Assembly: GCA_014904985.1 (NCBI GenBank)
Contig: MU129158.1
Location: 1-64,000 of the forward strand
DNA length: 64,000 bases
Source: Hydnum rufescens UP504
Taxonomy: Eukaryota; Basidiomycota; Agaricomycetes; Cantharellales; Hydnaceae
Direction: 5' to 3'
A model generated the notes under the pieces. That model worked only from the letters and a program-made list of their open reading frames with translations. It made no database searches and was not told where the DNA came from. The position numbers were made by a program, and so were the translations under genes. The number at the start of each line of letters is the position of its first letter. Position 1 is the stretch's first letter. Positions 3,688 to 63,480 of this stretch are shown piece after piece.

Positions 3688-3789
3688 GGTTAGCTGATAA
3701 TACTGTCCCAATCTTTGGTCACTTTCAGAATCAAGGAATCAATTTTTAATTATACTACAGTTAAATACAAAAAAGGTTCATATATATTA

Positions 3790-12043: not shown

Positions 12044-12430
12044 TTACAGGGGGGCAGGCACAAGAGGGGGAGCGGGCAGCGGACGGGAAAGTGGAGGGGA
12101 CAGGGACAGGGCCAGGGGTAAGTGTGTGGGAACTGGGAGTAAAGGAAACGAGGAAATGAAGGGGAAATGAAACAGAGATGGGAACAAATTGGAAACAGGC
12201 CAGAACCAAAACTGGAAACAAACCAGAAACAAATCTGGAATTAACCAGGAAACGGACAAACTCTGACAGGTGGGTGTACCTCATGGTGTGCCAGTTGTGT
12301 GGACCTCTCTCTGTATGGGCTTGTGTCCAGTTATCTTGCATGGGGTTCTGTTCAGGGGTCAATACTCACAGGTGCAGAGGTTTTTGTTGGTTGTTGGTTC
12401 AGGGGCTCTGGTGGAGTCTGGCACAATCTA
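12044..12430. other. Gene-free GA/CT-rich stretch
   Basis: Purine-rich on the plus strand (GGGACAGGGACAGGGCCAGG, GAAATGAAGGGGAAATGAAA). Overlapping minus ORFs here (12,030-12,362) are low-complexity and not credible. From about 12,250 the sequence resembles module spacer (TGTGTGGACCTC...GTTTTTGTTGG). Confidence 0.4.
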
Positions 12431-13319
12431 GAATCAAAGGTATATAAATAAAAAGTGATGCAAAAAGGGCAGCTTGTGCTGCCCTTTTTGTGCCAGGTTT
12501 AAAAAGAAAACATACCTTTTAGTACCACCTAGTATTGTGTTGCTTGTGTTGACAGGGGGGTCTGTACAGGCTCATGCCCAGTTTTCAATGGAAAGGGGTT
12601 GTGACCATGTCTCATGTGGTGGTTTAGAGTGGGAGCACCCAGAGTTTCAAAAATAATATGTCAGTTAAGTAGTAAAACCAGTGCAAAAAGAGCAGCTTTC
12701 ACTGCTCTTTTTGCACAGCCATATCTACTTGGGTGGGGGGACTCACCTTATATAGTACCACACACCTGCCATAGTCGGTGTGTGGCTTGTGCAGCCATTC
12801 ACTGGGTGTGTTGGTTGTGTTTTTGCAGGTTTCTTTGTTGTGTTGTATGGGAAGGGGGGGGTGGGTCATTTGTCATATCCCTGGGTTGTTTGGCAGGTTT
12901 TCACCTTGATGACCTAGAATAAAGATAACATTAGTTATTATAAGTTCAAACCAGTGCAAAAAGAGCAGCTTTTGCTGCTCTTTGTATGTGGGTGTATACA
13001 CTGGGGGACTACCTTCTATAGAGAGCCACACCCCACCATAGCAGGTGTGCAGCCACTTGTTGGGTGCATCATCATCTGTTGTGGTCACATTGGTTGTGTC
13101 TTCATTCACAGGATTTGGCTTGTGGGCCTTTGTTCAGTGGCTTTGGAGTTGTGGGGTTATGCTTGGATTTGGGGTTGTGGGGTTTTGCTTGGGTTTGAGG
13201 TTGTGGGGTTTTGGGCAGTGGGTTTGGGGTCAAGGGTTGGTGGGGGTTCAAGTCCAAGATCTAGAAAAATAAGATGTTGTTAGTTAAAGATTAAAGCAGT
13301 GCAAGAAGAGCAGCTTACT
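12431..13319 (-). repeat. Hairpin-module array of element D
   Basis: Contains four intron-type palindromes (near 12,462, 12,690, 12,955 and the left half at 13,298) and exon-type CACACC palindromes near 12,760 and 13,030, in the minus orientation. Read on the minus strand the intron boundaries are recognisable, for example CTAG/GT near 12,915. The last intron-type palindrome is cut exactly at its loop by the TGTCAGGGCCAC repeat at 13,320. Confidence 0.8.
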
Positions 13320-17617: not shown

Positions 17618-18190
17618 CAGGCTGGGCTTTCAGGTGGCTGTGTATGTCAGTATCTCACCTCAGACCTCGTCTGTGTTGGCTTTGAGTGGGGTTTCACACA
17701 GGGAGAAAGTACCTACATTAGTAAAAACAAAAAACACAAGTGGCACCAAAAGAGCAGTTAGTGCTGCTCTTTGTGTGCCATACTACTTGAAAACTCACCT
17801 AATACCACCACACACCCACTGCCACTGCAGCAGGTGTGTGGTTCCTGTTCTTGGTTGTCAGTGTTGAGATCTGAAGACATCACTCAACACCAGCAATAGC
17901 TGATCTCAAAAAAGTGCCCAAGTATGGTCAATACACACTTCATATAAATAGATAATCAATACCTACACATAGAATAATACTAAATAATAAATATTTTTCT
18001 AATAAAATTGAGGAAAGGATATAGCAACAATGCAAAGTGGATTGGGGGACTTCCCTGCATCAGAATTGGCCCATATTTAAATATGTTGGTGGCATGTATG
18101 TGTAGTGCATGGTCAATAAAAAAAAATGGATGTCCAGGCGATTTTTCAATTTCTCACTTTCATTGGCATTGAATTTGCCACTACATTCCA
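17618..18190 (-). repeat. Module plus half of the central palindrome
   Basis: 17,618-17,710 matches the spacer of an array A module (GCTGGGCTTTC..GGTGGC). It is followed by the two signature palindromes (17,745-17,775 and 17,808-17,840). From about 17,905 the sequence matches one arm of the long palindromes (AAGTGCCCAAGT..., GCAAAGTGGATTGGG, TTGGTGGCATGTATGT). The mirror arm is absent: the copy stops near CATTGGCATTGAATTTGCC. It is a fragment of a module element broken at or near the palindrome centre. Confidence 0.75.
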
Positions 18191-36693: not shown

Positions 36694-37440
36694 CAGGCTG
36701 GTCAGCCACTTTTCTGCATCATATTAGATATAATGAGCCTTGCATTTATTATATCTAACTAGATGTTTTTACCAGGGGGCCCCCAGGGGCCCCTGCAATA
36801 CAATCAAGGGGCCCCCAAGCAGCCCAGGGGTCCCTGCCAGATTATTAATTTATATATTTATTATTATTATTAGTATTATATTAGTATATACATCCATAGG
36901 CTTGCCCAGTGGGGCTCACCCTGTGCCCAAGAAGAGCAGCCAGAGGCTGCTCTTCTTGTGCAAGTGTAGCTAAAGAAAAAATGGTTACCTGGAATTCACA
37001 CCAGTCAGGTCCTGGGTTCCATTTGGGTGATCCCTCAAGGGGGTGTTGCTCATGGTTTTCATTCGTGCAGGCCTTTGTGGTTTCATTCCCGGTTTTTGTT
37101 TGTGGCATGTCATTCGGCAGGTCTGTGGTCGGGGGTTCGTGCGGGCTCTGGTCCAATATCTAGAGAACTAATTAATGAATTAGTTAAACATGAATGCAGC
37201 GCAAAAAGAGCAGCTTATGCTGCTCTTTTTGCACCACAAGAACAAGGAATAAAAATAAGAAATAAAAAATACCTTGGAGTACCCCACACCCGCTGCAGCA
37301 GTGTGGGGTACTGGGCTGTGTACTCTCACTCATACTTATGGGGGTTCATATGGGTGGCTGTCGTTCAGGTGTCAAAAAGGGGGGGGCAGGGGTTGTGCCT
37401 CAGTATTCATTTGCCAGGGATGTTGCACCTGATGCTGTAG
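36694..37440 (-). mobile_element. Element B: left end with two modules
   Basis: Starts CAGGCTGGTCAGCCACTTTT, the same terminus as the right end of element C in reverse complement. It continues through the matching GGGGCCCC block and AT tract (mirrors 50,000-50,210). Module hairpins follow at 36,930-36,955, 37,200-37,233 and 37,286-37,314 in the minus orientation. No central palindrome or right end is recognisable after about 37,440, and the preceding octamer TGTCAGCA is not found repeated nearby, so this copy is truncated. Confidence 0.7.
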
Positions 37441-41589: not shown

Positions 41590-42329
41590 CCTCAGAACTA
41601 TTGCCATGATCTTCGAGCTCCAACCACAAAGGATTGTCCACCAATATCCCTTGGGGAGTTTTGGAGAGGGCTGGAGGATCCGAAGAAGTATTAAAAGAGG
41701 TATACCAGAGATGATGGAAAAAGTCAATTTGGCATCACAGAATTCGAGCTTGTTTGACAGCGTAGGCTTGAATGCCTTCAGCAAGTTCGGGAACATGTGT
41801 TGATCGTGCAGAGGCTCGAGAGTCCAGACGTTGGCTCAGTGTTCCAAAGATATGAGAACTCGCCGCATCTCCTCCTGAACAATCAGGACCTCTTCCAGCC
41901 ACCTCTCTTTCCGTGCTTGGCTTTTTGACCACTCCACCTGTAGAGCTAACGAGTTAAAGTTAATATGTAAGGAGCCCAGTAACAAGAAAATAATATGCCA
42001 AATACCTTCATGCATTTCCAAATCACCATTGTCGCTTGCGCCATGTGCCATCCAGATCCATGACACTTGTCAGTGACCTTCGCGAGGCCCACTTCACACG
42101 TTGTGTCCACCATCCTCATGCTCAGACATTACACAGATGTTGCCTTGATCCAAAACCTTGAGTGTGTTCTCCCACTCACTGGAGCCCATGAGCTGAAGAT
42201 ACACTTGTCGCGCACAGTGATATCTCTCGGCAGCTAACTTTGTCTTTCCATCTGCCTTATCTAGAAGCGTGTGGGCTTGGGTGTTCGGATGCTGGCCTCA
42301 AACTTCACGATGTTTATAGCTGAGGAGGT
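41590..42329 (-). pseudogene. KDZ transposase, C-terminal part
   Basis: Continues the KDZ gene whose N-terminal part is at 52,054-54,982; the two were separated by element A. Minus-strand reading from 42,329: SYKHREV, stop, GQHPNTQAHTLLDKADG, YHCARQVYLQLMGSSEW, KVSWIWMAHG-like sequence (read here as QVSWIWMAHG). An intron near 41,944-42,003 (GTATTT...TAG) follows, then LQVEWSKSQARKERWLEEV, EEMRRVLISLEHW, and in another frame PELAEGIQAYAVKQA. Similarity ends near 41,590. Several stops and one or more frameshifts show decay. Confidence 0.8.
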
Positions 42330-42337
42330 GAGAGAGC
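42330..42337. other. Target-site duplication of element A, left
   Basis: GAGAGAGC, identical to 52,046-52,053. It lies inside the coding sequence of the KDZ transposase gene. Confidence 0.9.
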
Positions 42338-42639
42338 CACCTTGGACAGCTGTATGTGACCCCCTTGTTAGGTGTCTATTCTGGGGCATGATTTGGTACC
42401 TAAGTAGGTACCAGACACTATTGGGGCCCCAGTCCACCACTTTGGTTGTGGCTTGGGTGCCAATTGGGGTCCCATTGGGGCCTTATTGGGCCAACTTCTG
42501 GTCAACCACTGTGCTAGATCACATAAGTATTTATGATTATTTATACAGATACCCCCGGGGTCATATGTTTTCATTTGGTGGAGTCGCCAGTTTACAGATA
42601 GCTTGTGCAGGTTTCGAGTAGGGGACTTGATTGGGGGGT

Positions 42640-45250
42640 TGGTGTTGTAATTAAAAAAAAGACAGACAGATGGCACCAAAAGAGCAGCTGGTGCTGCTCT
42701 TTTGGCACCATAGTACACTCCGTGAAGAAAAACTCACCTAATAGTACCACACACCTGCCGAAGCAGGTGTGTGGTATCGTATTTAATTTCTCATTGTGGT
42801 TGCTGGGCTTTCGGGTGGCCGTGTAGGTCGGTATTTCGCCTTGGGCCTCATCTGTGCTGGCTTTGGGTGGGGTTTCGCAGTGAGAGAAGGTACCTAGAAT
42901 AGCAAATGCATTAGTAAAAGCAAAAAAAAACCAAGGCAACACCAAAAGAGCAGCTGGTGCTGCTCCTTTGGCATTGTGGTATACCCATAATGGGAAAACT
43001 CACCTAATATAGCCACACACCCGCTTTGGCGGGTGTGTGGCACTGTATTTGATTCATCGTTGTATTGGTTGTGGATAGTCGAGCGTTGGAATCTTGCATG
43101 GCTGTGCGGGCGCCCATAGTTCGCCCAGGCCTTGTCAGTGCATTCATTGCATGGAGGTTTCATGGAGGGAGAAAGCCTAGAATAATCAGTACGTTAGTTT
43201 TTAAAAAAAATAACAGAAGCAATGCCAAAAGAGCAGCTAGTGCTGCTCTTTTGGTGTTGTGGTACACCATGTGATGAAACAAACTCACCTAATAGTGCCA
43301 CACACCCGCTTCGGCGGGTGTGTGGCACCATATGTGATTCGTTGTCATGTAGAGATACTTGAGGTCGTCTTGGGTGGCTGTGCATGCACCCATATTTTGC
43401 CCTGGGCCTTGTCTATGTATTCTTGGGTGGGTGAAGTTTCGTGGTGGGAGAAAAGACCTAGAATAATGAGCATGCATGTTAATAATAAAAAAAAGAATCC
43501 AAGCAACGCCAAAAGAGCAGCTGATGCTGCTCTTTTGGCATTGTAGTATGTGGAAAACTCGCCTACTAATACCATACACCCGCCGCAGCGGTGTATGGTA
43601 TCGTATTTAACTCATCGTGGTGGTCACCATGGGTGTTTGGGGCTGGGCTTTCGGGTGCCTGTGTATGTCCATATTTTGCCTTGGCCTTCGTCTGTGCTGG
43701 CTTCGGGTGGGGTTTCGCGCAGGGAGAAAGAACCTGGAATAATCAATATGTTAGTAGAAAAATAATACAAGCAACGCCAAAAGAGCAGCAGGTGCTGCTC
43801 TTTTGGCATCGTCATAAACCGCGTGATAAAAAAAACTCACATAATATTGCCACACACCCGCTTTGGTGGGTGTGTGGCATCATATTTGATCCATCATTGT
43901 ATAACTTGCGGATGGTTGAGGGTTTGGGTCTTGGGCAGCAGCGCGCTCCCGTATTTCAGGGTGGGGGTTGTCTGTGTATTCTTCAGGGCGGTTTCACGCA
44001 GGGAGAAAGAATCTAGACTAAGTAATACGTTAGTAAAAAAAAAATAATGTATGCAACGCCAAAAGAGCAGCTGGTGCTGATCTTTTGGCATCATCGTACA
44101 CCCCATAATGAAAAGCTCACCCAATATTGCCACACACCCACTTCAGCAGGTGTGTGGCACCGTATTTGTTGCATAGTCGTATAGATTGCGGATAATCAAA
44201 AGTCGGGGGTCTACGCAACTGCGCACTCCCGCATTTTGCCCTGCGTCTGGTCTGTGCATTCGTCGGGTCAGATATTGCAGCGTGAAGGTCTCCCTAGAAT
44301 AGTAAAATGTTAGTAAAGAAAAAAAACTTGAAGGCAATGCGAAAAGAGGGGCCAGGGCTGCTCTTTTGGCATTGCCATACACCCCGTAATGAAGAAGCTC
44401 ACCTAATATTGCCACACACCCGCTTCGGTGGGTGTGTGGTGCCGTCCTTGTTTTGTTGTCATATAGGTTGTGAGTTGGGGTCTTGGGTGGCTGTACGCTC
44501 CCATATTTTGTGGTGGATGTTGTCTGTGCATTCTTCGAATGGAGGGAGAAAGAACCTAGACTAAGTAATACATCAGTAAAAAAAAAATAACATAAGCAAC
44601 GCCAAAAGAGCAGCTAGTGCTGCTCTTTTGGCGTTGTAATACACCCCGTAATTTAAAAAAAACTGACCCAAGATTGCCACACACCCACCGAAGCGGGTGT
44701 GCAGCACCGTACTTGATTTGTCATTGTAGGGGTTGGGGATATGCAAGGGTTGGGGTCCTGGGTGGCTGTGCGCACCCCTGTATTTCACCCGGGCCTTGTC
44801 TGTGTGTTCTTCGGATGGGGAGTTTGGCGGAGGGAGAAAACCTAGAATAACGAATATGTTAGTTTAACAAAAATAACAGAAGCAACGCCAAAAGAGCAGC
44901 CAGGGCTGCTCTTTTGGCGTCGTCATCCACCCTGTAATTAAGAAAAAATACCTAATATTACCACACCTGCCGAAGCAGGTGTGGCAGGCGTCATTCTATA
45001 GGTCATGGATAGTTTGAGTCTTGGGGTCCTGGGCGGCTGTGTGTGCCCTCGTATTTCGTCCTGAGTCTCGTTGGTGCATTCTTCGGGTAGCAGAGGGAAG
45101 GAACCTAGAATAATGAACGTTAGTAAATAAAGAATTCAAGCAATGCCAAAAAAGCAGCCAGTGCTGCTCTTTTGGCATTGTGGTACAGCCTGTAAAAAGA
45201 AAACTCACCTAACAGTGCCACACACCTGCCCTGGTGGGTGTGTGGCACTT
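42640..45250 (-). repeat. Array A-left: ten hairpin modules
   Basis: Ten modules of 260-290 bp. Exon-type palindromes lie near 42,750, 43,012, 43,300, 43,578, 43,852, 44,132, 44,414, 44,679, 44,961 and 45,220. Intron-type palindromes precede each, for example 43,227-43,258 GCCAAAAGAGCAGC/GCTGCTCTTTTGGC. On the minus strand each module reads: exon, hairpin ending ...TATTAG, GTGAGT, hairpin, ACTAAC/ACTAAT, then CTAG. Many short ORFs (for example those containing PHTRFGGCV) arise only because the palindrome is repeated; they are not genes. Confidence 0.9.
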
Positions 45251-45302
45251 GCTTTGGGCACCTTAGATGTTAGACTTGAGTCTAAATAGATGTGAGGAGA
45301 TT

Positions 45303-45859
45303 ACTCAATGCCAGGACTTTCCGGGCTTGAAAGAACACCCAATTGGGGGCAGTGCAAGCCTCATATAGATAGATAATAAATACCTAGATGCAAAATAAAT
45401 AATAAATACTAAATATTTGTCTAATACAAGTGAGGAAAAGAGGGATAGTCAGTTGGATTGCACTAAGGCAGCATGTGCAAAGCAGAATTGGGCGACTTCC
45501 ATGCATTATAATTGGCCCAAAATTGAGTATCTTGGTGGCATGTATGTATATTTCATGGATGCCGAAACGAATTGGACAACCTGGCTAATTTTCAATTTCT
45601 CGCACCTTCAATTTCCTATTTAGGAAATTGAAGGTGCGAGAAATTGAAAATTAGCCAGGTTGTCCAATTCGTTTCGGCATCCATGAAATATACATACATG
45701 CCACCAAGATACTCAATTTTGGGCCAATTATAATGCATGGAAGTCGCCCAATTCTGCTTTGCACATGCTGCCTTAGTGCAATCCAACTGACTATCCCTCT
45801 TTTCCTCACTTGTATTAGACAAATATTTAGTATTTATTATCTATCTATATGAGGCTTGC
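45303..45859. repeat. Central palindrome of element A (left arm and most of right arm)
   Basis: The arms meet near 45,620 and are almost perfectly complementary for about 200 bp, so that an identical 66-67 aa run can be read on both strands (45,417-45,623 and 45,822-45,616). The left arm carries about 26 extra bp near 45,385-45,410. The left arm begins ACTCAATGCCAGGACTTTCC at 45,303. The matching end of the right arm is now at 50,219-50,269, displaced by element C. Confidence 0.9.
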
Positions 45860-46194
45860 CAAACCAGTCAGCCATAATTGTATATCTAGTTAGGCCCTTT
45901 TGCCTTGCTTTTATTCAATCTAAGAGTGGGTTTTTAGGTGGGGGCCCCTGGGGCCCCACTGGGTGATTTCATGGCATGAGACAAGGGGCCCCATGGGGCC
46001 CCTCTCACCTTAGACTGGGACTTAGAGATTCTCAGACTTGCAGGACAGCAGGCCATATGGCTTATTGGGGATAATATGCTCCGTCTATAATTATTTATTT
46101 ATTGTCACTATATTATACATATGTACCCCCAGTTTCATTCAGTAGTCCCATGTTTTGTTCTTATTTACTTGTTTATTTATTTAAAAAACTATCT

Positions 46195-48105
46195 AATAGC
46201 ACCACACACCCACTTCGGTGGGTGTGTGGTACTAGGGGTGTGCCTTGGCACTTCACCATTGGGCATGGGTCACAGGTTGTGTTTGCCGTGCTTCAATTTG
46301 GATCCTAGTTAGTAAAAAAAACTAAGTGATGCAAAAGGAGCAGCTTGCGCAGCTCCTTTTGCATCATTGTAGATATAGAAATTAAAAAAAAAAAAGCCTT
46401 GTAGTACCACACACCCACCAAAGTGGGTATGTGGTACTGTTTTGTACTGTGGTTGCACGGTTCATACTTGGTACCAGGGCCGGTCATCTAGGGGGTTCGT
46501 GGGTTTTGTTTGGGGGGTGCGTGTTTGTATGGTGGCGTTGTGGGTCTTGATTGAGGGCTCAAAAGATACCTATGATAATAAGTAATAAGTTAGTAAAAAA
46601 AGAAAAACCATGCAAAAGGAGCAGCACATGCTGCTCCTTTTGCATGGTCGCACTAATAGAGGGCAAATACTTACTTTAAAAATTACCACACCTGCCGAAG
46701 TGGGTGTGGGGTTCATCCCGGGCCTCTGTGGCCTCACGTCATGTTCTGTTGTTCTCAGGTTTCGTTTCGGGCATGGGGGTAGATGAAACCTACGGTACAG
46801 AATAATATGTTAGTAAAAAAAAAGAAAAGCTACACCACAGGAGCAGCATACGCTGCTCCTTTGGTGCGATCATATTTATTTACCTTAATTACCACACACC
46901 CGCTTCGGCAGGTGTGGTTCATCTTGGGGTTCCGCGGTCTTGCATCATGGGTCCCATTCCTGGGTTTTGTCTGGTGGGTGTCTCTTGCCCAGTCGTTGTT
47001 GGCAGGCTTCGTTCGGCATTTGCTTGGCCGGTTGCAGTGTCATTTCCCAGGGGGTGGGGGGGGGGTTCATGTGGTGGGTGGTTGAGGCAATAGCCTAGAA
47101 TAAATGTAAGGTGTTAGTTAAAAATTAAAATTACAATGAACACAAAAAGAGCAGCAAGAGCTGCTCTTTTTGCGTCGTTGGGGGGTGCACTATTACTTAC
47201 CTCGTATAGAACCACACACCCGCTACTGCAGGTGTGTGGCTCTTCTCTTTGTGTGGTGTGTCATTGTTCACAGGGGTGTTGTCGTTCTGGGGGGGGCTTG
47301 CTTCATGGGTCTTCATTTGTGACGATATCTAGAATAAAAAATCATTAGTTAAAAAATTAAAAGTGACGCAAAAAGAGCAGCTTTTGCTGCTCTTTTTGCG
47401 TCATCGGGGTACATTACATACCAAGTATAGAACCACACACCCGCTACTGTGGGTGTGTGGTTCATCTCTTTGTGTGGCGTGTCATCATTCGCAGACCCCG
47501 TTTGCGGGCATGTTATCATTCTGGGGGGTTGCTTCATGGTCTTCATGTGTGCCGATACCTAAAATAAAATATTATTAGTTAAAAAATTAAAAGCGACGCA
47601 AAAAGAGCAGCTTTTGCTGCTCTTTTTGCATCGTTGGGGTACATACCAAGTATAGAACCACACACCCGCTACTGCGGGTGTGTGGTTCATCTCTTCATGT
47701 GGCATGTTGTCATTCGTGGATCCGTTTGCGGGCATGTTATCGTTCTGGGGGGGTTGCTTCACGGGTCTTCATTTGTGGCAATACCTATAATAAAATATTA
47801 TTAGTTAAAAAATGTAAAGCAATGCAAAAAGAGCAGCCAAAGCTGCTCTTTTTGTGTGGCTGCATCTATTGGGGGGAGGAGACTCACCTTAAATAGTACC
47901 ACACCCGCCACAGTGGGTGTGGTTCCTGGGCCCACTCATTGGGCAGCCTGTCATTTTTTTTGGTTTTGATCTGGAGTAATAAAGGCTACATTAGTACAAA
48001 AATTCACAGCAGCACAAAAAGAGTAGCTTGTGCTACTCTTTTGTGCTATTGTATCTACTGAAGACAAAACTTACCTTATGACCACACACCCGCATCAGCG
48101 GGTGT
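46195..48105 (-). repeat. Array C-left: nine hairpin modules
   Basis: Exon-type palindromes near 46,203, 46,404, 46,684, 46,890, 47,213, 47,433, 47,660, 47,901 and 48,083, with spacing from 180 to 320 bp. The three modules at 47.1-47.8 kb are the most alike (AAAAAGAGCAGCTTTTGCTGCTCTTTTT). Stem variants include GGAGCAGC...GCTGCTCC (46,618-46,643) and GAGTAGC...GCTACTC (48,020-48,039). Confidence 0.9.
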
Positions 48106-48109
48106 GTGG

Positions 48110-48174
48110 TTGTGTGGTCGTGGTTGTGTGGTCGTGGTTGTGTGGTCGTGGTTGTGCGGTCGTGGTTGTGCACT

Positions 48175-48223
<49 letters not shown>

Positions 48224-48250
48224 TCGCTGCTGCTGTTGCTGTTGTGTCGT
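48110..48250 (+). repeat. GTGGTCGT and CTG/TGC microsatellites
   Basis: GTGTGGTCGTGGTT repeats (48,110-48,168) are followed by a (GCTGCTGCT)n-type triplet run with interruptions (about 48,175-48,240). They lie between the last module of array C-left and the palindrome arm. The long Cys- or Leu-rich ORFs across the run are artefacts. Confidence 0.9.
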
Positions 48251-48302
48251 GGTCATGCGGTCGCATTTCTGTTGCTGGATGTGGCTGCGTAGTTGCAAAA
48301 TT

Positions 48303-48687
48303 CAACGCTGGCAATTGCCGATATTCAAGAAGTGCCCAAGTGCTGGTGCTGCAAGCACAGTACACAATAGTACCAAGCATGTATATTTAAAATAAATAAT
48401 ATATAATAAATATTTGTCCAGGAAAACCTGAAGAAGACAATGATAATGAGTCAGAGCTCAATAAAGCATGAGATGGCTAATTGCAGAGTGGCCCAATCCA
48501 CTCTGCAATTAGCCATCTCCATGCTTTATTGAGCTCTGACTCATTATCATTGTCTTCTTCAGGTTTTCCTGGACAAATATTTATTATATATTATTTATTT
48601 TAAATATACATGCTTGGTACTATTGTGTACTGTGCTTGCAGTGCCAGCGCTTGGGCGCTTCTTGAATATCGGCAATTGCCAGCATTG
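48303..48687. repeat. Central palindrome of element C
   Basis: Two ~190-bp arms (48,303-48,491 and 48,498-48,687) around the loop CCCAAT, with only scattered mismatches. Both arms carry AATATTTATTATATA and GGCAATTGCC. Related sequence forms the palindromes at 45.3 kb and 63.5 kb and the half-palindrome at 17.9 kb. Arrays on the two sides point away from it. Confidence 0.9.
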
Positions 48688-48749
48688 AATCTGCATCTTG
48701 CTTCCTATCTCCGCAACCACAACAAGCAGCCACCTGAAAAGGCAAGTGC

Positions 48750-49935
48750 ACGACCATGCACCCGCCACTGCGGGTGTGTGGTCACAAGGTGAGTCTTTTT
48801 TTCCAGTAGATACAATGGTGCAAAAGAGCAGCAAAGCTGCTCTTTTTGTGCTGCTTTGGAATTTGTTACTAACACGCCTTTATTTATTTTAGATTGAGGC
48901 CTCACCCAACGCACGATGAGAGCCCAAACGGGAATGTGACCCACAGGAATGCGACATGGCAGTGCAACGCACGGGAACACAACATGGCAGCGCAATGTAC
49001 GGCGATGCGACATGGGCACGCGACACAGCAATGCGCCAACGATGCGATATATGGCACCGCGCCAAATGAGGATGTGACCGCATCAAATGACACGCCAGGA
49101 ATCACACACCCACTGTGGTGGGTGTGTGGTTCCATATCAGGTGAGTTCCTTCCCCCCACTACCTACAGCGACACAAAAAGAGCAGCAAAAGCTGCTCTTT
49201 TTGCATGTTGTTTAACTCTTAACTAATATATAATATTATATTCTAGGTCATCACTTCCCACATGAATGAATACCCATGCGAGAACCCCCGTAACCCCGCC
49301 CATCGACACCCGAACGATGTGGTACAGGGACGAAACGAACGAGCCAACGAACAAACGAACAATGACATGCACAGGAAGCCACGGAGAAGACGAGCAGGGA
49401 AACAGAGAGCCACGCACCGCTGTGGTGGGTGTGTGGCTATATAAGGTATGTATATTTTGAATAGCTATGAATGCACAAAGAGAGCAGCAGTCGCTGCTCT
49501 CTTTGCACGACTTTTGATTTTAACTAACATATTGCTCTCCATTCTAGGTTGGGGTGTCCAACCCCAATGCACAAACACACACCCCCGCCCAAATCAACCC
49601 ATCAACCCACCAACCAGCCCAGTACCCCACACCCCCTGCAGCGGGTGTGGGGTACTACAAGGTAAGTGTTATTTTATTTTTATTTTTAATTCTTGTGGCG
49701 CAAAAAGAGCAGCATAAGCTGCTCTTTTTGCGCTGCATTAATCTATTATTTATTTATCTAGATCTTGTAGCAGAACCCGCGCAAACCCCCAACCCCGACC
49801 ACAAACCCACCGAATGACACGCCATGAACGAAACCTGTGATGAAACCCATGAATGAAACTGGCAAACGAAAACCACAAACAAAACTGGCGAATGGCACCC
49901 CAACTGGGGTGGAGGTAAGTATCCCCTTTAGGTAA
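48750..49935 (+). repeat. Array C-right: four module units plus a tail
   Basis: Plus-strand modules with clear splice-like signals. Examples are CACAAG|GTGAGT ... TTACTAACAC ... TTTTAG (48,788-48,893) and ATATAAG|GTATGT ... TTAACTAACAT ... TTCTAG (49,445-49,548). Two further units start at 49,108 and 49,628. Exon-like stretches are rich in A and C and poor in T (AACGAACGAGCCAACGAAC). The last intron-like unit ends at CTAG near 49,760, followed by an exon-like tail to GTAAG near 49,918. Confidence 0.85.
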
Positions 49936-50339
49936 GTCTTTTTTTCTTTTAGCTATAATTGTGAAAGAAGAGCAGCCTCTGGCTGCTCTTCTTGGGTACA
50001 GGGTGAACTGATGGATGTATATACTAATATAATAACAATAATAATAATAATAATAAATTAATAAATAATGATTTGGCAGGGGCCCCTGGGGGGGCTCTTG
50101 ATTGTATTGCAGGGGCCCCCAGGGGCCCCCTGGTATAAACATCTTGTTAGATCAATAAACGCAAGGCTCATCATATCTAATATGATGCGGAAAAGTGGCT
50201 GACCAGCCTGAGGCTTGTGCTGCCCCTAATTGGGCACTCTTTCAAGCCCGGAAAGTCCTGGCATTGAGTGGTTTGTTTTGATGCTTACCTCAGCCATTTC
50301 GTTCGTATATAGGACTTGACCACAGGATCCAGAGGAACT

Positions 50340-51700
50340 AGAAGAGGACCACACACCCGCAGCAGTGGGTGTGTGGTCATATAGGTGAGTTCCTTCCCAC
50401 TATGTACAGCCGTGCAAAAAGGGAAGCCAAAGCTGCCCTTGTTGTACTTCTAACTAACAGTAGTATTTCCATTCTAGGTTTAAGGTTCTCGCCTCCAACC
50501 GACCTGCATAATGATGATCCCAACCCCGATGGCTGCCTGGAAATCAACGCGGGTCGAAATCCGCCCAACACCCCGCATACATGCGCAGCCCCATGCGACA
50601 ACAGATAAAACACGGCACCACACACCCGCTGTGGTGGGTGTGTGGTCCTATTAGGTGAGTTTTCCTTCCAATACCATACTCCGGCACCAAAAGAGCAGCT
50701 GTAGCTGCTCTTTTGGTGCTGCTTCTCTTCAATTTTACTAATGTACAATTTGTTGTTCTAGGCTTCCCCCCTGCACGAAAATCCACCCGACAAGAAAACA
50801 TGGAGCCCCTGCATAATATGGATGTGTATGGCCACCCAAATCCAGAGGGTCCCGCCTACGCGATGTTACCATGGCCCCCAAGCCCATGCAACGACGGATA
50901 GATACGGCACCACACCCACTGCAGTGGGTGTGGTGCTATCTGGTGAGTTCTTTTTTTTATACTAACATTACTATGTGCTATTCTAGGTCCCCCTCCCTGC
51001 ATGAACACCCGCACAACACATAGCCACTGAAGAGGGCTAACTCCTGAACGAAACCCCGCACGATGCATAGCCACTGAAGATCATGCCCAAGGGGCCAACT
51101 CCTGAATGCCCGCAATGGACACAACGACGGGCAAAGCATGGCACCACACCCGCTGTGGTGGGTGTGGGTGCCTCATAAGTTTTTCATTACTAGTTGTACA
51201 ATGGCACCAAGAGAGCAGCACCAGCTACTCTTTTGGTGCTGCCTCTCTTTTATTTTACTAATGTAGCACATTGTTTGTTATTCTAGCCTGTGCCTCCATG
51301 AAAATCTGCCTGACAGGAACATGGATGAAGCCCCTGTGCATAATACGGACGTGCGCAGCTGCCAAAGATTATGTGTAAGGGTCTGGCCCCTGAACCAGCA
51401 GCAACCTACACAATGATGGACAATGGGTTACCACACCCCCGCTCCAGCAGGTGTGTGGTAATCTCAGGTAAGTTCTCACTCAATATAGTCTCTACTAATG
51501 ATTCTTTTGTTATTCTAGGTCACCCCTGCCCCCAATGAAACCCAACCCAACAAGAACATGGACAGAGCCCCAACAGGAAATACGGACATGTGCAGCCCCT
51601 GAAAATCTCACCCGATCGAGTGGAATTGCGACAAAATGAATACCCCCATGTAATGTATGCATGCAAAGCCCCCATATTTTAGGGGGACTTTCACCAGGTA
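50340..51700 (+). repeat. Array A-right: five hairpin modules
   Basis: Exon-type palindromes near 50,350, 50,622, 50,912, 51,146 and 51,433. Intron-like segments: 50,392-50,478 (GTGAGT...CTAACTAACA...TTCTAG), 50,655-50,761, and two short ones without any hairpin (50,942-50,986 and 51,469-51,519). The hairpin at 50,415-50,440 has lost pairing (GGGAAGCC/GCTGCCC). The exon-like parts share CCCGCACA and GACAA..ATGG words. Confidence 0.85.
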
Positions 51701-51839
51701 TGTGTTCTTGTCTTTCAAGTATACTCCCTGCACCTGCAGGGAGTGGATATAGTGGATATTCTACTAGCTGTTGATACCATAATTGTAATAATTAAAATTA
51801 AATGCAGATCAGTGCCTCAGTAGTGTGGAAACTATGAAG

Positions 51840-52045
51840 GGGTTCATTTTGGAGCCACATTGGGGCCCATGGCACCACATTGGGGTATATGGGCCCAATT
51901 GGGGCCCCATTTGGGCTGATTCTCTGATATTGAATTATCAATTGGCACCCATATGGCACCCCATCACAATTGGACCTACTTAGGTACCAAAAAGTGTCAC
52001 AAATTTGATACCTATCATAGGTATCAAATATGGCTGACCAGTCTG
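51840..52045. other. Right subterminal region of element A
   Basis: GGGGCCCC-like blocks (CACATTGGGGCCCATGGC, CCCAATTGGGGCCCC), then ACCTACTTAGGTACC and a second palindrome GATACCTATCATAGGTATC next to the terminus. The order mirrors 42,338-42,520. Confidence 0.8.
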
Positions 52046-52053
52046 GAGAGAGC
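52046..52053. other. Target-site duplication of element A, right
   Basis: GAGAGAGC, identical to 42,330-42,337. Confidence 0.9.
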
Positions 52054-54982
52054 ACACATAGGGAATGCCGGACTTCAGCAAGAGAATCAAGAGCTTGTGC
52101 AAAGTGAAGCTTTGCAATCATTTCAGCAAGACTTTTGGCAAGGGGAGAAATCTGCAACTCAGGATTAAGAGCATGTGGAAGAAAAAGCAGAGATGATTCC
52201 AGAGACAAGGGGGTGTCTGTGATTATATCGACAGTGATGAGCAAGGCCGTTTCAGGCATGTATACCTGTTGGATAGAACGAAATGCAGCTATGCGATTAG
52301 ACAGTGCAAGTCGATGGCTTTGAATATTGGTGGATTGGGTGCTTGTGGGTAGCGATCCAACCACTGTGACATCCCTCGCTAGCCACCGCCTCCACAAGAA
52401 CGAGTAAGAAAAAAAAAACTAGGTGAAACAGAGTTATGGATACATACTGTGCCTCCTCAATCTCCAGGCCAACACACAGAAACGATGTCGCACTCGTATT
52501 GTGGATAGCATGACCACCAGTCAACGACAAGTGGCTCTGCTCTGATTCCAGCAGTTCTAGCTGGATGTCTGCTTGTGTTTTAGCTGACCGCAATAGAATA
52601 GTGAGGTCCTGGGAATGGAGGCACCAATACGCAGAAAAGTATTACTCACATGAAGACCTAATGTAGTAGGGATTTGGCTTGGAACAATCTGCTTCCCATG
52701 CCAATATAGCATTCTCATACTCTCAAACCATCGCCAGGTCCAGTCCACCTGTAAATGACTTGAACTGTTCGACATGCTTTGCACTCTCAACTTGGGCAGT
52801 CTTCAGCTTCGTAAGAAGAGATTTCCCTGCATAAGAGGGTGCAACATCAGTCAAAAAAAAGTAAGATGACAAGGGAACCCACCTAACCCAATTTCCTTCT
52901 GGAAATTCTTGTCACCGAGAAGATCATCCAACATATCATGATGCGCACCCTCACTCATCTCCTTTGTACTGTTTGCAGCAATGTTAATCTCCACCCATTC
53001 CCGTTCAATGCCTTCACCATCCATGCAACCAACACCGGGGGTGAAATTAAGGGAATATAAGACACTGCATTCAGATTTATGGGCAAGCATGTGGAGCTTG
53101 GGAAGAAAGAGTTTGACAGAGAGCTTGTCCAAATCAACCCACAGTTCAGGAGGGAGCCGGGGCATGCGTTGCCTAATTTTTGTCCAGTATTGGCAGATGA
53201 GATCGTATGAAAGCACAAGCGATGGTGGAGAATAGCCTCTGAGTGCGGAAAATATGATATAATCCATATTGGAAAAGCTGAAATCATGTTGAGCCCATCA
53301 TGGACTGTATATGGACATCTGATCAACGTACCGTTCGCCCTTCTGGAGGTCACCTATTCCAAGAGGGTGAAGAAACCCATGACATGTGCAGATTGAAGCC
53401 CCCACCCCAGTAATGCAGAGACCCTTAGAATTCTTCGTATTTGTGTGATCAATTGCAGCAAGGCCACTGCAAGTCAACATCTATGTAAGCGGGTTAATAG
53501 TGAACAAGACATGGCTCAGACGAGGCTTACCTCGGTCTAGGCACCTTGCTGTGCAAGAAATTGTTTGTAGGGCTCATTCTCGACAAAATACAACCATCCG
53601 GTCCTGAGATCAACATCGATGACAGTATTTGAATGATTTTTCAAATGAAAATTGGCATTGTTGGCCTGAAAGTACATGTATAGATATCTGCCCAGGATTA
53701 TAATGTAAAACACTCTGGCATCCTAAACATTATGAACTCATTGAAGTTCCCGAGGTGATTTCTCCCAATTGGGGGGGAGGTTTATATCTGGATCGGGGCA
53801 TGCAGGACATGTAATTGCAAGTTCGCCAGGTTTCATGCCATCAGTACCACTTGGGTCATGTGCATGTCCGCCATGCTTCAATAATTTGAGATTTCACCAT
53901 TCACAGATAATGCGAAGGAAGGAAACATATCGTGTCTGAGGGATGTAATGAGTACCAGGCGATGAACAGGTGAGTGGGAAATCACCTGCAGATTCAATAA
54001 GCCAGTATTGTTGGTCCCCCTTTCGAGCACACAGTAGAACTGGTGTGCAGATAATTTGGACTGAAGACTGAGGAGATGGAAGTGGCAGAGTACATCGAAA
54101 GTAGCACATGTTTGCGGCAAAACAATGGTCGCTGGGAACCAACCAGAATGGAGTAGTTGGATATGAGCATGAGGAGCAGTAGAGCAATCACAAAAATAAA
54201 TCGAAACTTTGTGAAGGCCATTTATGTGAATTACAGTGAATGACGATGCGCCTTTCCTTGGATTTGGGCAGGGACGATTGCCATGGCTGAGCTGTACCAT
54301 GAGGCCTAACTCGAAAAGGGTTGTGTGTTCAAAGCAGCCGCTGTCCCATGTCTTTTGTGTTGGATGCATGAGACAAGTCAAAATATGAACATCAAAATAT
54401 GAAGAAATACATAGGCCTACCTCGATTTGATGTAGAGGGAGGCGGCGATGATGATTAACGCAACAATTCTGACACAGTAGACCTCTGTTGAAGCACTGGT
54501 GACACCAATAAATAGCCTGTACATTAGTATCACAGCATTCTTCACATGATCCAGATGAGAAGCCTTGTCTGCCATCGCAGACCAGCAAGGCATCAAGGTA
54601 CTCATCTGGCAGGGGTTTCCATTGTTTCAGGGGCTCATCCTAAACATTATTTCAGTGCATGAAAACCATGCAGTAGAGAAAAACACACCATATTGGAATA
54701 ACACTTGCGTGAGGTGGGACCTGGTAGATAGTGCACAGTGCCAAGGTCATCATTATCACCTGGGATGTCCTGACCAAAATCTGGACCAGAAATTGGGGAC
54801 AAGTGTGAGCAGTTGGGCCTTGCAGGTTTATCAGGAGTCGCTGGAACAATGAGACAATCAGAGGTGAGGACAGATTCAGATGAAGTAGTGGAGATATGGT
54901 GGACAGTGGCTTGACTTTGGAGCTCAAAGTCACAAGTGAAAGTGAGTTTGGCCTTCTTAGCTGGCCGATGTGTCCCACCCAT
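52054..54982 (-). pseudogene. KDZ transposase, N-terminal and central part
   Basis: DNA transposase of the Kyakuja-Dileera-Zisupton group. Minus strand: exon 1 54,982-54,689 (MGGTHRPAKKAK), intron GTGTGT...TTTAG, exon 2 54,639-54,421. Exon 2 holds the Cys/His cluster CEECC...WCHQCFNRGLLCQNCC and HHRRLPLHQIE. Later parts show LGLMVQLSHG and FCDCS (about 54,310-54,170). They continue with CSGLAAIDHTNTKNSKG and GIGDLQKGERY (53,470-53,340). LSYDLICQYW and DGEGIEREWVEIN follow (53,210-52,980). QVYMPETALL lies near 52,260 and LDSLAEVRHSLCVL at 52,100-52,060. Premature stops include TAG at 53,537-53,539 (Gln expected) and TGA at 52,733-52,735. The gene resumes at 42,329 beyond element A. Confidence 0.88.
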
Positions 54983-55524: not shown

Positions 55525-55983
55525 TTAATGCACATGACGGGATTCCACAATGATGGTGGACAGCTCTTCAAGCTTGTGCTTGGAGTGTAGAAGCATGCCA
55601 AGGTGTAAAATAATTGTGTGAAAAACGTATCTTAGACACTGGATAAATGGGATAATTTTGTGGGATCACATAGTCTCTTCTTGGTCAATTTCGCACCTTC
55701 TTGTCCTATTAGAAGTGCATAAATAAGTCAGAATCCCACCACACAGATATATATATATGGAAGTCTTTGAAGTAAAGAAACATACCTTGCTGTTTTGGAG
55801 TAATTCCATCACCTGGCACTCGCATGGAATGTGGCTGGCTACCTCGTGAATGATTGACTGCACCAGCTTTTGCTTTGGCAACCGAATGCCCTTCCGGTGA
55901 CTTAGCTTCGCAGCCTTTTCGATGGGAGTTGTGGGGTGTCCCTTGTTAGTGCCAACGCGGAGGTCTACATACAATATGGCCAT
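55525..55983 (-). pseudogene. 60S ribosomal protein eL36, intron-containing pseudogene
   Basis: Exon 1 at 55,983-55,796 encodes the eL36 N-terminal two-thirds (VGTNKGHPTTPIEKAAK, LSHRKG, VMELLQNSK). An intron follows (GTATGT ... TAATAG, about 55,795-55,706), then GACAAGAAGGTGCG, where one base is missing from the KKxRKLTKK stretch. A second intron-like gap lacks a proper AG acceptor, and the C-terminus is LHSKHKLEELSTIIVESRHVH-like to TAA at 55,525. Retained introns show it arose by DNA-level duplication, not retroposition. Several normally basic residues are changed (for example Cys in place of Arg), so it is a relic and not the working gene. Confidence 0.85.
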
Positions 55984-55989
55984 TAAGAC

Positions 55990-57060
55990 CACAGGACTTT
56001 GTGGTTTTTTCCTTGTTTGAGGTGTTTTGAGATTTTGAGGAATGTTTTCTCACAGAGACAAGTGCAACTAAATGGCCTACAGACTCGCTGATGCCCCTAT
56101 TCCAACTCGCTTAGTAATCAGGGGAAGTAATCATCACTTTCACTATACACCACTACCACTACCTTTGTTTACACATTATTAATAAGTCGCTGGCTGGCAT
56201 GTCTCTTAAAGAACAGGGAATACTGCTGATGTAAGCATCATCACGCTCATTTGAATGGTTTTGGTTTTGGTTGGTAACCGTATGGTTGAGGAACCAGTAC
56301 ATTCAAACCACGGTTATGGTCAGGAATTGCAGTTGGTTACTACAAAATATGCAAGCTTGTGCATATGTACTGCAATGTAATATCTCTGGGTTTCTCTACT
56401 GATACCCAAAAAATCTGTCTTGAGGGAAATCCCAGATGGGCGAGGTTTGTTTTATATACTGCATCAGGCTGCCTACAGGTAATGGTGAGGCACCTAGGGC
56501 AGTCCTTTTATAGGGTTGTACATTATGTGTGTCGGTTCTGTCCTGACTCTGACTGCTTGCTCTCCCTTGGACTCATATTGTTTCTGTTGCCTCCGCCGAT
56601 CTGACATTCCTAACTTCATCTACCATATGGCTGAGAGCCATGTTTCCTTGTTTTTGGGAGGGGCATAGGGCATATGCATATAGGGTGGAATGTTTCAATA
56701 TGGTTGATCTGAGTTTATTATGTTGAACTTAGCTTTGTGAAAGCTGTGGAAACTTCGATAAAGTTGGCTAGGCATCATATGCCTTTCATAACACAAGTGA
56801 GCAGGAGTAGGGATGAGAGAAACAAATGTAATGTATCCACGCAACTGAGTCCGGCTGGCTGCTCCAAGTGCACCCAATTCTCTATGCCACATTTGTCCAC
56901 TAGACCTACGAGGAGGAATTTGTAGAGCCCGGAGTGTCTGGGGCGATCATCTCTATAGAGTGATATGCTTTTGACAGTGCCGAGGTGGTGATCTATGCTT
57001 GTGTGAAACAACCGCATTCAAGAAGCGAGAAAATTCTTCCTTGATGCCAAGGCAAAGCAC
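55990..57060. other. No gene seen
   Basis: Short ORFs only (for example 56,359-56,604 plus and 56,775-57,017 minus), none with a recognisable domain. A degenerate inverted string GGTTTTGGTTTTGG/AACC occurs at 56,250-56,320 (ACGGTTATGGTCAGGAATTG), without clear borders. Confidence 0.3.
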
Positions 57061-61865: not shown

Positions 61866-61984
61866 GGGTGTAAAAGGGTTACCATGCTTTGATGCAACCA
61901 AGTTATCAGCCATAGTTGCAACCATTCCATGGTAAGTTACTGTTCTTGTTGCAAAATATTTACAGCATGGGCTGGATGTTGAGA

Positions 61985-63480
61985 CCTACAAAACAAACTT
62001 TTAAGTTAGTTAGAGATTAAAAACCATGCAAAAAGAGCAGCTTTCACTGCTCTTTTTGCACAGGTGTAGCTACTGGGGGTGGGGGCTCACCTTATATAAT
62101 ACCACACACCCGCCGCAGCAGGTGTGGTACTTGCACATTCACCGTTTCATTCACAGGGTTTGGTTTCACTTGGTAGGTTTGGGGTTGTGGGGCTTTGGGG
62201 GGTTCAAGATCTAGAAAAATAAGGGTGTTAGTTAAACATTAAAGCATGGCAAGAAGAGCAGCTTACACTGCTCTTCTTGCGCCACACAAATAAATAAAAA
62301 TAAACAATAAAAACTCATCTGGGAGTACCACACACCCACCACAGCAGGTGTGTGGCTCCCTATTTTCCTGTGCGGCCCAGTTCGCAGGTTCACATTGGTC
62401 GTTGGTCGTTTCGTGGTTTCATTCATGGGGGTGGGCCTTTGTTCAGCAGGTTCAGCATCACGGACCTCCATTCAGTGGGTTTGGTGTCGCGGGCCTTCAT
62501 TCAGTGGGTTCGGCATCTCGGGTTTCGCTCTGTGGGTTTGGCGTCGCAGGGTTCAAGTTCAAGATCTAGAAAAATGAACAGGTTAGTTAAATATTAAAGC
62601 ATTGCAAGAAGAGCAGCTTACACTGCTCTTCTTGTGGCACAAAAATAAAAATAAAATAAAAAAACAATAAAAACTTATCTTGAAGTACCACACACCTGCC
62701 ACAGCGGGTGTGTGGTTCCTGCGGCCACTCATTGGCTCCACATCATTTTGTGTCTTTGCTGTGGGGTGATCCTTCTTCACTCACATGGTTTTCATTTGGT
62801 GTGTGGCTTTTGGCATGCATTCATGTCATGGGCTGTCGTTTCGGGGGGTTTGGGGTTCATTTGGTGGGTGATTGTTTGGCGGGGATCTGTTCCACTCGTT
62901 CTTGTTGGGTGGTTCTTCATTTCATTGGTTGTAGGGTAGGGGATAACCTAGAAAAAATATTTGTGTTAGTGAGAAATTAAAACCAGCACAAAAAGAGCAG
63001 CTTTCACTGCTCTTTTTGCATGGCTGGATATACTGGAGGGGGAGACTCATCTTATAGAGAACAACACACCTGCCATAGTGGGTGTGGGGTTTGTGCAGCC
63101 ATTCACTGGGTACATTGTCATCATCGTGTTCATTGCGTTTGTCGCGTTTGTCATCTGTCGTCGTCATGTTCATCGTGTTTGTCACATTTGTTGCATTTGT
63201 TGCATTTGTCATGTTCGTTGTGTTTGTCACATTGTCATGGTCTTCCTTCTCGTGTTGTTGCCTGGCATGGTCCTAATGGGGCCCTGGTAGGTCAGGCCCT
63301 TGTCGTTTGGCTGATCCTTAAGACCAGGTCATGATCTATATGAAAGGTGCTGTGTTAGTAAACAAGGTCAAAGCAGCGCAAAAAGAGCAGCTTTTGCTGC
63401 TCTTTTTGCGCTGTTGTATCTACTACAATAAAAAAAACTCACCTTGTGACCACACACCCGCATCAGCAGGTGTGTGGTCA
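61985..63480 (-). repeat. Hairpin-module array at the right edge
   Basis: Five minus-oriented modules. Intron-type palindromes lie near 62,027, 62,250, 62,605, 62,990 and 63,375, and exon-type palindromes near 62,101, 62,328, 62,689, 63,065 and 63,452. Stem variants include AAGAAGAGCAGC...GCTCTTCTT (62,249-62,280). Exon-like spacers are GT-rich on the plus strand (TTTGTCACATTTGTTGCATT). The left terminus of this element was not identified. Confidence 0.85.

What the first reader, a model, noticed from the sequence alone, without database searches (positions are those of the whole stretch)
42338..52045. A 9.7 kb mirror-symmetric non-autonomous element, exactly delimited inside a KDZ transposase gene
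The flanks carry a perfect GAGAGAGC duplication. Removing the element joins KDZ coding sequence that reads SLAEVRHSLCVL on one side and SYKHREV...GQHPNTQAHTLL on the other, as expected for one protein. The inside has no transposase but a strict plan: related ends, GGTACC and GGGGCCCC zones, an array on one strand, a long palindrome, an array on the other strand. I know of no described fungal element with this architecture. The octamer duplication suggests mobilisation by a hAT-type enzyme (inference).
Basis: partly seen in the sequence, partly recalled or inferred. Interest (0 to 1): 0.93.

Follow-up and report, generated by a model that had tools for sequence, protein, structure and literature searches.

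The report
Nested mushroom transposons carrying intron arrays
A 9.7-kb insert in the hedgehog mushroom is really two jumping-DNA elements, one inside the other, each filled with rows of what look like ready-made introns reading outward from its middle; thousands of such units occur in this genome, and I found no description of this kind of element.

Summary
The insert is real and its ends are exact (42338-52045, 8-bp duplication GAGAGAGC). The interrupted CxC2-KDZ transposase gene has six uninterrupted paralogues matching the joined flanks end to end. The genome is Hydnum rufescens, most likely strain UP504.

Two corrections. (1) It is two nested elements: a second one (45860-50210, duplication AGGCTTGC/AGGCTTGT) sits inside the first, and six sister copies of the outer element show its empty site. 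(2) The mobiliser is most likely a KDZ transposase, not hAT. Of 82 genomic matches to the right terminus, 20 have a KDZ domain 1.8-2.7 kb inside, 0 have KDZ outside, 0 have hAT within 4 kb inside. Ten of 16 left-right pairs have perfect 8-bp duplications.

New point: the arrays are series of spliceosomal-type introns (GTRAGT, branch site, YAG; about 105 nt, every ~280 bp in array A). Most have a hairpin inside, and another lies just upstream of the 5' splice site. They read outward from the palindromes, which are head-to-head copies of a conserved leader. Genome-wide there are 5,092 intron-hairpin sites and 1,437 exact exon-hairpin/5'-splice-site motifs. The exons look mostly noncoding. Transcription, splicing and function are inferred.

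The parts
42330..42337 (.). target-site duplication GAGAGAGC, left
52046..52053 (.). target-site duplication GAGAGAGC, right
42338..52045 (+). outer element E1 (9,708 bp with the nested E2)
42338..42544 (+). left terminal region (CACCTTGGACAGC...), shared by other subfamilies over 152-206 bp
51788..52045 (+). right terminal region (...GGCTGACCAGTCTG); last ~205 bp 81-82% identical to right ends of KDZ-coding loci
42620..45242 (-). array A: 10 intron units, spacing 262-286 bp
45395..45844 (.). outer palindrome, arms 224 nt, 100% complementary, 2 nt apart: head-to-head leaders
45852..45859 (.). target-site duplication AGGCTTGC of the inner element, left
50211..50218 (.). target-site duplication AGGCTTGT of the inner element, right (7 of 8)
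45860..50210 (+). inner element E2 (4,351 bp), termini CAAACCAGTCAGCC... and ...GGCTGACCAGCCTG
46285..48106 (-). array B: 8 intron units
48300..48690 (.). inner palindrome (arms 171 nt, 97%)
48757..49779 (+). array C1: 4 intron units (a weaker fifth at 49896-50053)
50352..51524 (+). array C2: 5 intron units; two predicted introns (50943-50986, 51468-51518) lack the hairpin but keep the splice signals
52851..53297 (-). KDZ transposase domain of the interrupted host element
   Evidence: PF18758, E 1.2e-30
53878..54639 (-). CxC2 cysteine cluster, taken to be of the same gene
   Evidence: PF18803, E 4.4e-40
42040..42337 (-). 3' part of the interrupted KDZ gene

Best explanation
The interval is two nested non-autonomous DNA transposons of the KDZ kind in Hydnum rufescens. 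SHOWN: exact termini (5'-CA...TG-3'), 8-bp target duplications, copies elsewhere with and without the inner element, empty sites, and a right terminus shared with KDZ-coding loci. INFERRED: a KDZ transposase made elsewhere cuts and pastes them in trans. SHOWN as sequence: the payload of each is a module of two head-to-head copies of a conserved AT-rich leader (the palindrome), followed on each side by a series of units with 5' splice site, hairpin, branch site and 3' splice site, and a second hairpin just before each 5' splice site, pointing outward. INFERRED: the leaders are promoters, transcription runs outward from the centre, and the product is a spliced, intron-rich, mostly noncoding RNA. 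INFERRED, weakest (about 0.3): the arrays help the element by keeping its RNA efficiently spliced and its chromatin transcribed, so that it is less silenced (fungal RNAi can be triggered by stalled spliceosomes) and its ends stay open to the transposase.
For: Termini and duplications: among the 30 left-end and 30 right-end loci read, 16 left-right pairs lie on one strand within 15 kb; 10 have an 8/8 duplication, two (both on C9) have exchanged flanks, four have none (the right end of C14 corrected). Longer relatives of 30.1 and 35.1 kb have 8/8, one of 20.8 kb has 7/8. KDZ: 20 of 82 right termini have KDZ 1.8-2.7 kb inside on the same strand, 0 of 82 have it within 4 kb outside, 0 of 82 inside on the opposite strand; similarity among three KDZ loci stops at that terminus. 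Nesting. Splice units: in 25 aligned units GT 22 of 25, AG 24 of 25, CTRAY 22 of 25; mean column identity 0.93 in both stems, 0.83 at the 5' site, 0.92 at the 3' site, against 0.50-0.54 in exon sequence and 0.66 in the rest of the intron. Of 115 hairpins in 12 elements, the strand named by the 5' site and by branch plus 3' site agrees in 58 and differs in 4 of the 62 assigned uniquely by both; seven of the 12 are sister copies, and with only C250, C9b, C111 and C193 it is 27 to 1, of 49 hairpins. Genome-wide: 5,092 intron-hairpin sites (control 4); 1,437 exact hairpin-5'ss motifs (control 0); 1,115 hairpin-branch-3'ss motifs (control 1+1; some sites counted twice). Among the first 100 listed of the 1,437, neighbours within 2.5 kb run minus-then-plus 15 times and plus-then-minus 3 times.
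Against: No RNA data, so transcription and splicing are not shown. Only the right terminus is tied to KDZ; the left ends of KDZ-coding elements were not recovered. The KDZ hit inside the 35.1-kb element lies 22 kb from its right end and may belong to a nested element; no listed KDZ hit lies inside the 20.8- and 30.1-kb elements (only 150 KDZ matches were listed). A palindrome of at least 120 bp at 88% or more was found in 6 of 12 elements, so it is not universal. Wobble pairs do not favour the transcribed strand (20 G-U against 16 A-C in 62 distinct intron hairpins), so selection on the RNA hairpin is not shown. Among four sister copies, 0 of 120 non-CpG splice-signal positions vary, but only 35 of 2,371 non-CpG positions vary at all, so this proves nothing (three of its nine 5' sites were misplaced by some bases). 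Stop codons are rarer than in shuffles in the predicted exons, which a purely noncoding reading does not explain.
Confidence: 0.72

Rival explanations
1. hAT transposase moves the element.
For: 8-bp duplications fit hAT; 90 hAT dimerisation matches exist in the genome.
Against: 0 of 82 right termini have one within 4 kb on the inner side and 1 of 82 within 10 kb; KDZ elements also make 8-bp duplications (PMC12730594, PMC12810828).
Confidence: 0.04
2. The arrays are, or recently were, protein-coding multi-exon genes for a repetitive protein.
For: 26 hypothetical proteins, all of H. rufescens UP504, match a string of open-frame translations of 7 of the 9 internal array A exons (only proteins of 0.55-1.75 times the query length are searched). 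Seven were mapped; they lie on the strand that reads outward and many of their exons start at the TTCTAG-type 3' motif. With corrected 5' sites, 13 of 24 predicted exons are open in at least one frame (shuffles 9.0 +/- 2.1; 25 of 500 reach it) and stops in all frames number 116 against 139.9 +/- 8.0 (1 of 500 shuffles as low). Five of nine array A exons are multiples of three.
Against: Overall 8 of 24 exons are multiples of three, the chance share, and all three spliced frames of all four arrays contain stops, 6 to 15 each. The antisense strand is depleted of stops as well (75 against 89.2 +/- 6.8) and more open (15 of 24). Deletions in exons between copies are 1, 2, 10, 17 and 18 nt, 3 of 20 a multiple of three. 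No Pfam match above cut-off in ten ORFs. Several gene models place the 5' site inside the exon hairpin instead of at the GTRAGT after it, as my own first script did in 7 of 28 introns, which suggests ab initio guessing.
Confidence: 0.15
3. The hairpins work at DNA level, as repeated subterminal transposase-binding palindromes or as a satellite kept perfect by strand-switching; the splice-like motifs come along from an ancestral unit.
For: Stems are 96% Watson-Crick (970 of 1,012 positions) with no clear G-U excess on the transcribed strand.
Against: Splice signals stay where the exon sequence is diverged; two predicted introns without the hairpin still have 5' site, branch and 3' site; strand agreement 58 to 4, and 27 to 1 among four dissimilar elements. 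The stretches read of three KDZ-coding loci show no arrays among the 300 listed of 363 matches, apart from two hits at the ends of a palindrome in C322, so ends without arrays seem to move too.
Confidence: 0.2
4. The arrays are a reservoir of introners: hairpin introns that can be copied into host genes.
For: Thousands of similar units, more than a thousand with exact splice motifs.
Against: Of 17 further model matches in the window outside the element, none is flanked by long open frames on both sides; the best is 45 and 39 codons (one match had no 3' site and several 5' sites fell in the hairpin, so this is a rough test). A genome-wide test in host genes could not be run. The passages that I saw of an introner survey name only Pezizomycotina among fungi (PMC9860276).
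Confidence: 0.08

Closest known systems
KDZ transposons (Kyakuja-Dileera-Zisupton), e.g. KDZ1 of Cryptococcus (PMC12810828, passages) and Kyakuja/Zisupton/Dileera (PMC12730594, abstract, passages, sections 11 and 19)
   Same: 8-bp target duplications (Zisupton, Dileera, KDZ1), CA...TG termini (Kyakuja); right terminus shared here with KDZ-coding loci
   Different: no transposase found inside; ends only weakly inverted (67 nt, 73%) whereas KDZ1-3 have TIRs of 139-241 bp; the payload is an intron array
Introners / introner-like elements (PMC9860276, passages; hairpin structure of fungal ILEs is recalled)
   Same: repeated sequences with complete splice signals; many introner families show DNA-transposon marks
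   Different: here the introns lie in tandem inside larger mobile elements; copies in host genes were not found in the window and not testable genome-wide
Foldback-type and palindromic non-autonomous DNA transposons (recalled)
   Same: inverted symmetry, long palindromes, no transposase
   Different: symmetry is of outward splice units around a central leader pair, not of long terminal arms

Membership tests
non-autonomous KDZ transposon | 8-bp target-site duplication | tested here: met
   10 of 16 pairs 8/8, 2 with exchanged flanks, 4 without
non-autonomous KDZ transposon | termini shared with a KDZ-coding element | tested here: inconclusive
non-autonomous KDZ transposon | CA...TG end dinucleotides | tested here: met
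non-autonomous KDZ transposon | long terminal inverted repeats (139-241 bp in Cryptococcus KDZ1-3) | tested here: not met
   only a 67-nt, 73% inverted match; Kyakuja is reported to have none, so this is not decisive
non-autonomous KDZ transposon | movement depends on KDZ transposase | not testable with these tools
   needs a transposition assay
hAT | 8-bp target-site duplication | tested here: met
hAT | hAT-coding element with the same termini | tested here: not met
   0 of 82 right termini within 4 kb, 1 of 82 within 10 kb
introner | complete spliceosomal splice signals in a repeated sequence | tested here: met
introner | copies forming introns of host genes | tested here: inconclusive
   only 17 other matches in the window could be examined, roughly
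TET/JBP-carrying KDZ transposon | TET/JBP gene | tested here: not met
   one hit below cut-off in the genome

The most novel reading that the evidence does not exclude
A distinct class of mobile element whose payload is not a gene but a series of ready-made introns: thousands of hairpin-tagged splice units in one mushroom genome, transcribed divergently from palindromic promoters, acting on the spliceosome or on spliceosome-coupled silencing (decoy or shield) to the element's benefit.
Probability: 0.35. Interest if true: 0.93.

Novelty: new variant of a known kind. Interest (0 to 1): 0.8.

Why it matters
If the units are spliced, a DNA transposon family has turned the spliceosomal intron into its main cargo: 5,092 hairpin sites at about 280 bp each would be about 1.4 Mb, roughly 2% of the genome (estimate). 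That gives a direct test of how fungal genome defence reads introns in foreign RNA, and a possible source of new introns in basidiomycetes. It also gives fungal KDZ transposons large non-autonomous relatives, and would explain at least seven species-restricted 'hypothetical proteins' in the public annotation as gene models over transposon arrays, with 19 more likely.

Tried and rejected
hAT as mobiliser: rejected. One element with one plan: rejected for two nested ones. Known RNA families: none at the gathering threshold in the window; the 39 permissive matches, the strongest to microRNA models on the palindromes, all lie below their cut-offs. RNA-level selection on the intron hairpin: a hand tally of the fold_alignment table gave about 40 G-U to 13 A-C, but it included loosely aligned outer pairs; a direct count gave 20 to 16, so I do not use it. 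TET/JBP cargo: none above cut-off. Relatives in IMG/VR: 8 pattern matches, none with the intron hairpin, context unrelated. Plasmid collection: no match to one unit. Protein-coding arrays: see rivals. Promoter scan: bacterial consensus, uninformative. The 401-aa ORF next to the left end of the related family on C480 has no Pfam or PDB-sequence match.

The inversion on C9 spans about 41 kb, not 45 as in my notes.

Literature: I looked for a described element of this kind (open-access PMC only) and found none in the listings; subscription papers and Repbase were not searchable. Papers opened: PMC12730594 (abstract, passages, sections 11 and 19), PMC12810828 (passages), PMC9860276 (passages). All others: search listings only.
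Full report
1. The element occupies 42338-52045 exactly, starts CACCTTGGACAGC and ends GGCTGACCAGTCTG, and is flanked by GAGAGAGC on both sides. The flanks joined with one copy of the octamer (484 nt) match six other loci from end to end at 87-94% identity (C151, C110, C349, C16, C380, C33); the remaining four of ten matches are the window's own two halves and two partial copies. So the site before insertion is visible in six paralogues. The interrupted gene carries KDZ and, nearby on the same strand, CxC2 domains.

2. Where it is. A NACHT protein of the window is identical over 93% of its length to BS47DRAFT_1354017 of Hydnum rufescens UP504, and six contig lengths of the searched genome equal those given for proteins of that strain (68,324; 79,549; 157,645; 172,385; 18,636; 52,854). 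One detail does not fit: that NACHT protein is listed on a contig of 78,226 bases, whereas the window's contig has 73,366. The genome is 63.2 Mb in 539 contigs.

3. Other copies. Pattern searches with up to two mismatches give 60 left and 82 right termini, against 1 and 0 for the reversed patterns. Among the 30 left-end and 30 right-end loci that I read, 16 left-right pairs lie on one strand within 15 kb. Ten have a perfect 8-bp duplication (window, C169, C274 twice, C9:454908, C100, C38, C111, C193, and C14 with the corrected right end). Two, both on C9 and in opposite orientation, carry each other's flank (TCACCCTC exactly; TGCCAAGC with a one-base shift), as expected if the ~41 kb between them was inverted by recombination between the copies. 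Four (C108, C248, C150, C239) show no duplication. Longer relatives with related termini measure 20.8, 30.1 and 35.1 kb, with duplications matching 7/8, 8/8 and 8/8.

4. Two elements, not one. Four sister copies (5.3-6.0 kb) lack the stretch between element positions 3507 and 7872. At that place the window holds an insert of 4,351 bp (45860-50210) with its own termini CAAACCAGTCAGCC and GGCTGACCAGCCTG and the octamers AGGCTTGC and AGGCTTGT. The uninterrupted sequence GAGGCTTGYRCTGCCCC is present in 6 of 6 other copies of the outer element that were examined. The 'mirror plan' of the finding is therefore two nested copies of one plan.

5. Who moves them. The last ~205 bp are 81-82% identical to the right ends of other loci. 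Of the 82 right termini, 20 have a KDZ domain 1.8-2.7 kb inside on the same strand, 0 have KDZ within 4 kb outside, and 0 have KDZ inside on the opposite strand within 4 kb (one search listed 150 KDZ matches, so 20 is a lower bound). Three such KDZ loci are about 96-97% alike over 3.7-4.4 kb and their similarity stops at the terminus. hAT dimerisation domains: 0 of 82 within 4 kb inside, 1 of 82 within 10 kb. KDZ relatives are reported to make 8-bp duplications (Zisupton, Dileera: PMC12730594, sections 11 and 19 and passages; KDZ1: PMC12810828, passages) and Kyakuja to have CA...TG ends and 7-bp duplications. The left end of a KDZ-coding element could not be read, so the link is firm for one end only. 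The left ends of a related family (C480, C15, C405) are followed by an open frame (401 aa on C480) without known domains.

6. What the arrays are. Read on the minus strand in A and B and on the plus strand in C1 and C2, a typical unit runs: exon hairpin CCACACACCCGC-N4-GCGGGTGTGTGG; 5-12 nt later a 5' splice site (A)GGTRAGT; intron hairpin CCAAAAGAGCAGC-N4-GCTGCTCTTTTGG; a CTAAY branch site; YAG. In 25 aligned units GT is present in 22, AG in 24 and CTRAY in 22. Mean column identity is 0.93 in both stems, 0.83 at the 5' site and 0.92 at the 3' site, against 0.50-0.54 in exon sequence and 0.66 in the rest of the intron. Two predicted introns of C2 lack the hairpin and keep all splice signals. 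A covariance model built from 21 of the units finds 27 in the element at 49 bits or more, 18 in A and B on minus and 9 in C1 and C2 on plus; the strand of the 21 training units is given by construction. I left out everything below 49 bits, which includes two further plausible units (42.6 and 37.6 bits) and opposite-strand echoes of the palindromic hairpins (up to 47.9 bits). An independent test without the model: in 12 elements, 115 hairpins were found by their core; the strand named by the 5' site and that named by branch plus 3' site agree in 58 and differ in 4 of the 62 that both assign uniquely. Seven of these elements are sister copies; with C250, C9b, C111 and C193 alone it is 27 to 1, of 49 hairpins.

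7. Genome-wide. The intron hairpin core (up to 1 mismatch) occurs 5,092 times, control 4. The exact string exon-hairpin arm, 5-12 nt, AGGTRAGT occurs 1,437 times, control 0. Hairpin, branch, 3' site occurs 1,115 times, control 1+1, with some sites counted twice. Among the first 100 of the 1,437 sites (the only ones listed), neighbours within 2.5 kb run minus-then-plus 15 times and plus-then-minus 3 times, so outward polarity prevails there.

8. The palindromes. An arm of the outer palindrome, both arms of the inner one, and a further copy at 17.8-18.2 kb align as one AT-rich leader (GACAAATATTTATTATTTATTATTTATTTT ... GCTTGCA.TGCCC ... CATTGA.T) just ahead of the first exon hairpin. The palindrome is thus two leaders head to head; I read it as a divergent promoter pair (inference). 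In three of the four sister copies named above it is 630-634 bp long at 96-98% identity; in the window it is cut by the inner element. Only 6 of 12 elements have a palindrome by my criterion, so outward arrays do not require one.

9. Coding or not. With 5' sites corrected, 8 of 24 predicted exons are multiples of three, the chance share (5 of 9 in array A), and every spliced frame of every array contains stops (6 to 15). Between sister copies, exon deletions are 1, 2, 10, 17 and 18 nt, and 227 of 262 variable sites are CpG positions. Against the noncoding reading: stops in all frames of the exons number 116 against 139.9 +/- 8.0 in shuffles (1 of 500 as low), and 13 of 24 exons are open in one frame against 9.0 +/- 2.1 (25 of 500 reach it; one search gave similar figures with the uncorrected sites). 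The antisense strand shows a weaker depletion (75 against 89.2 +/- 6.8). Also, 26 annotated hypothetical proteins, all of this species, match array exons. I take these as automatic gene models; the seven that I mapped lie on the outward strand. A coding past of array A is not excluded.

10. Mechanism. Shown: mobility marks, nesting, the right-end link to KDZ, and the splice-unit architecture as sequence. Inferred: trans-mobilisation, outward transcription, splicing. For the benefit to the element I favour escape from silencing through efficiently spliced transcripts, because stalled spliceosomes trigger RNAi in a basidiomycete yeast (recalled; one search gave only a search listing). This is the weakest step, about 0.3. 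The CpG decay of the copies suggests that methylation has acted on them in the past (inference).

11. Novelty. As a mobile element it is a non-autonomous variant of a known superfamily. A payload made of tandem, hairpin-tagged intron units appears in none of the listings or passages seen.

Noticed in passing
G000:C9:392241-397678 (-) and 438324-442380 (+) (L069, L070): Two inverted E1 copies carry each other's target duplication (one exact, one shifted by a base), the mark of a ~41-kb inversion by recombination between them.
   Followed up: partly
window 61980-63474 (-), 12422-13049 (-), 17707-18180 (-), 3734-4015 (-), 36923-37307 (-): Further array units and a leader outside the finding, so the window seems to hold several such elements; a left terminus lies at 15544 (-) and a right terminus at 36694 (-), neither paired with a duplication.
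   Followed up: partly
P0125-P0150: 26 'hypothetical proteins' of Hydnum rufescens UP504 match array exons; the seven mapped are gene models laid over transposon arrays.
   Followed up: partly
L069, L071, L072 and window 42538-45297: Four sister copies differ mostly at CpG positions (227 of 262 variable sites; 163 of 205 singleton changes are C>T or G>A; 35 of 2,371 non-CpG sites vary), suggesting recent spread and DNA methylation.
   Followed up: yes
L080 3628-4938 (C322): A 1.3-kb palindrome, 98.9% identical arms, beside a KDZ gene and bounded by the same intron hairpin.
   Followed up: no
L066, L067, L068: Elements with a related left terminus have a conserved open frame (401 aa on C480) right inside the end, without Pfam or PDB-sequence match.
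   Followed up: partly
window 48106-48241: A 14-bp tandem repeat (GTGGTTGTGTGGTC) and a CTG repeat lie between array B and its palindrome.
   Followed up: no
window 55666-56049 (-): Ribosomal protein L36e-like frame next to the KDZ gene.
   Followed up: no
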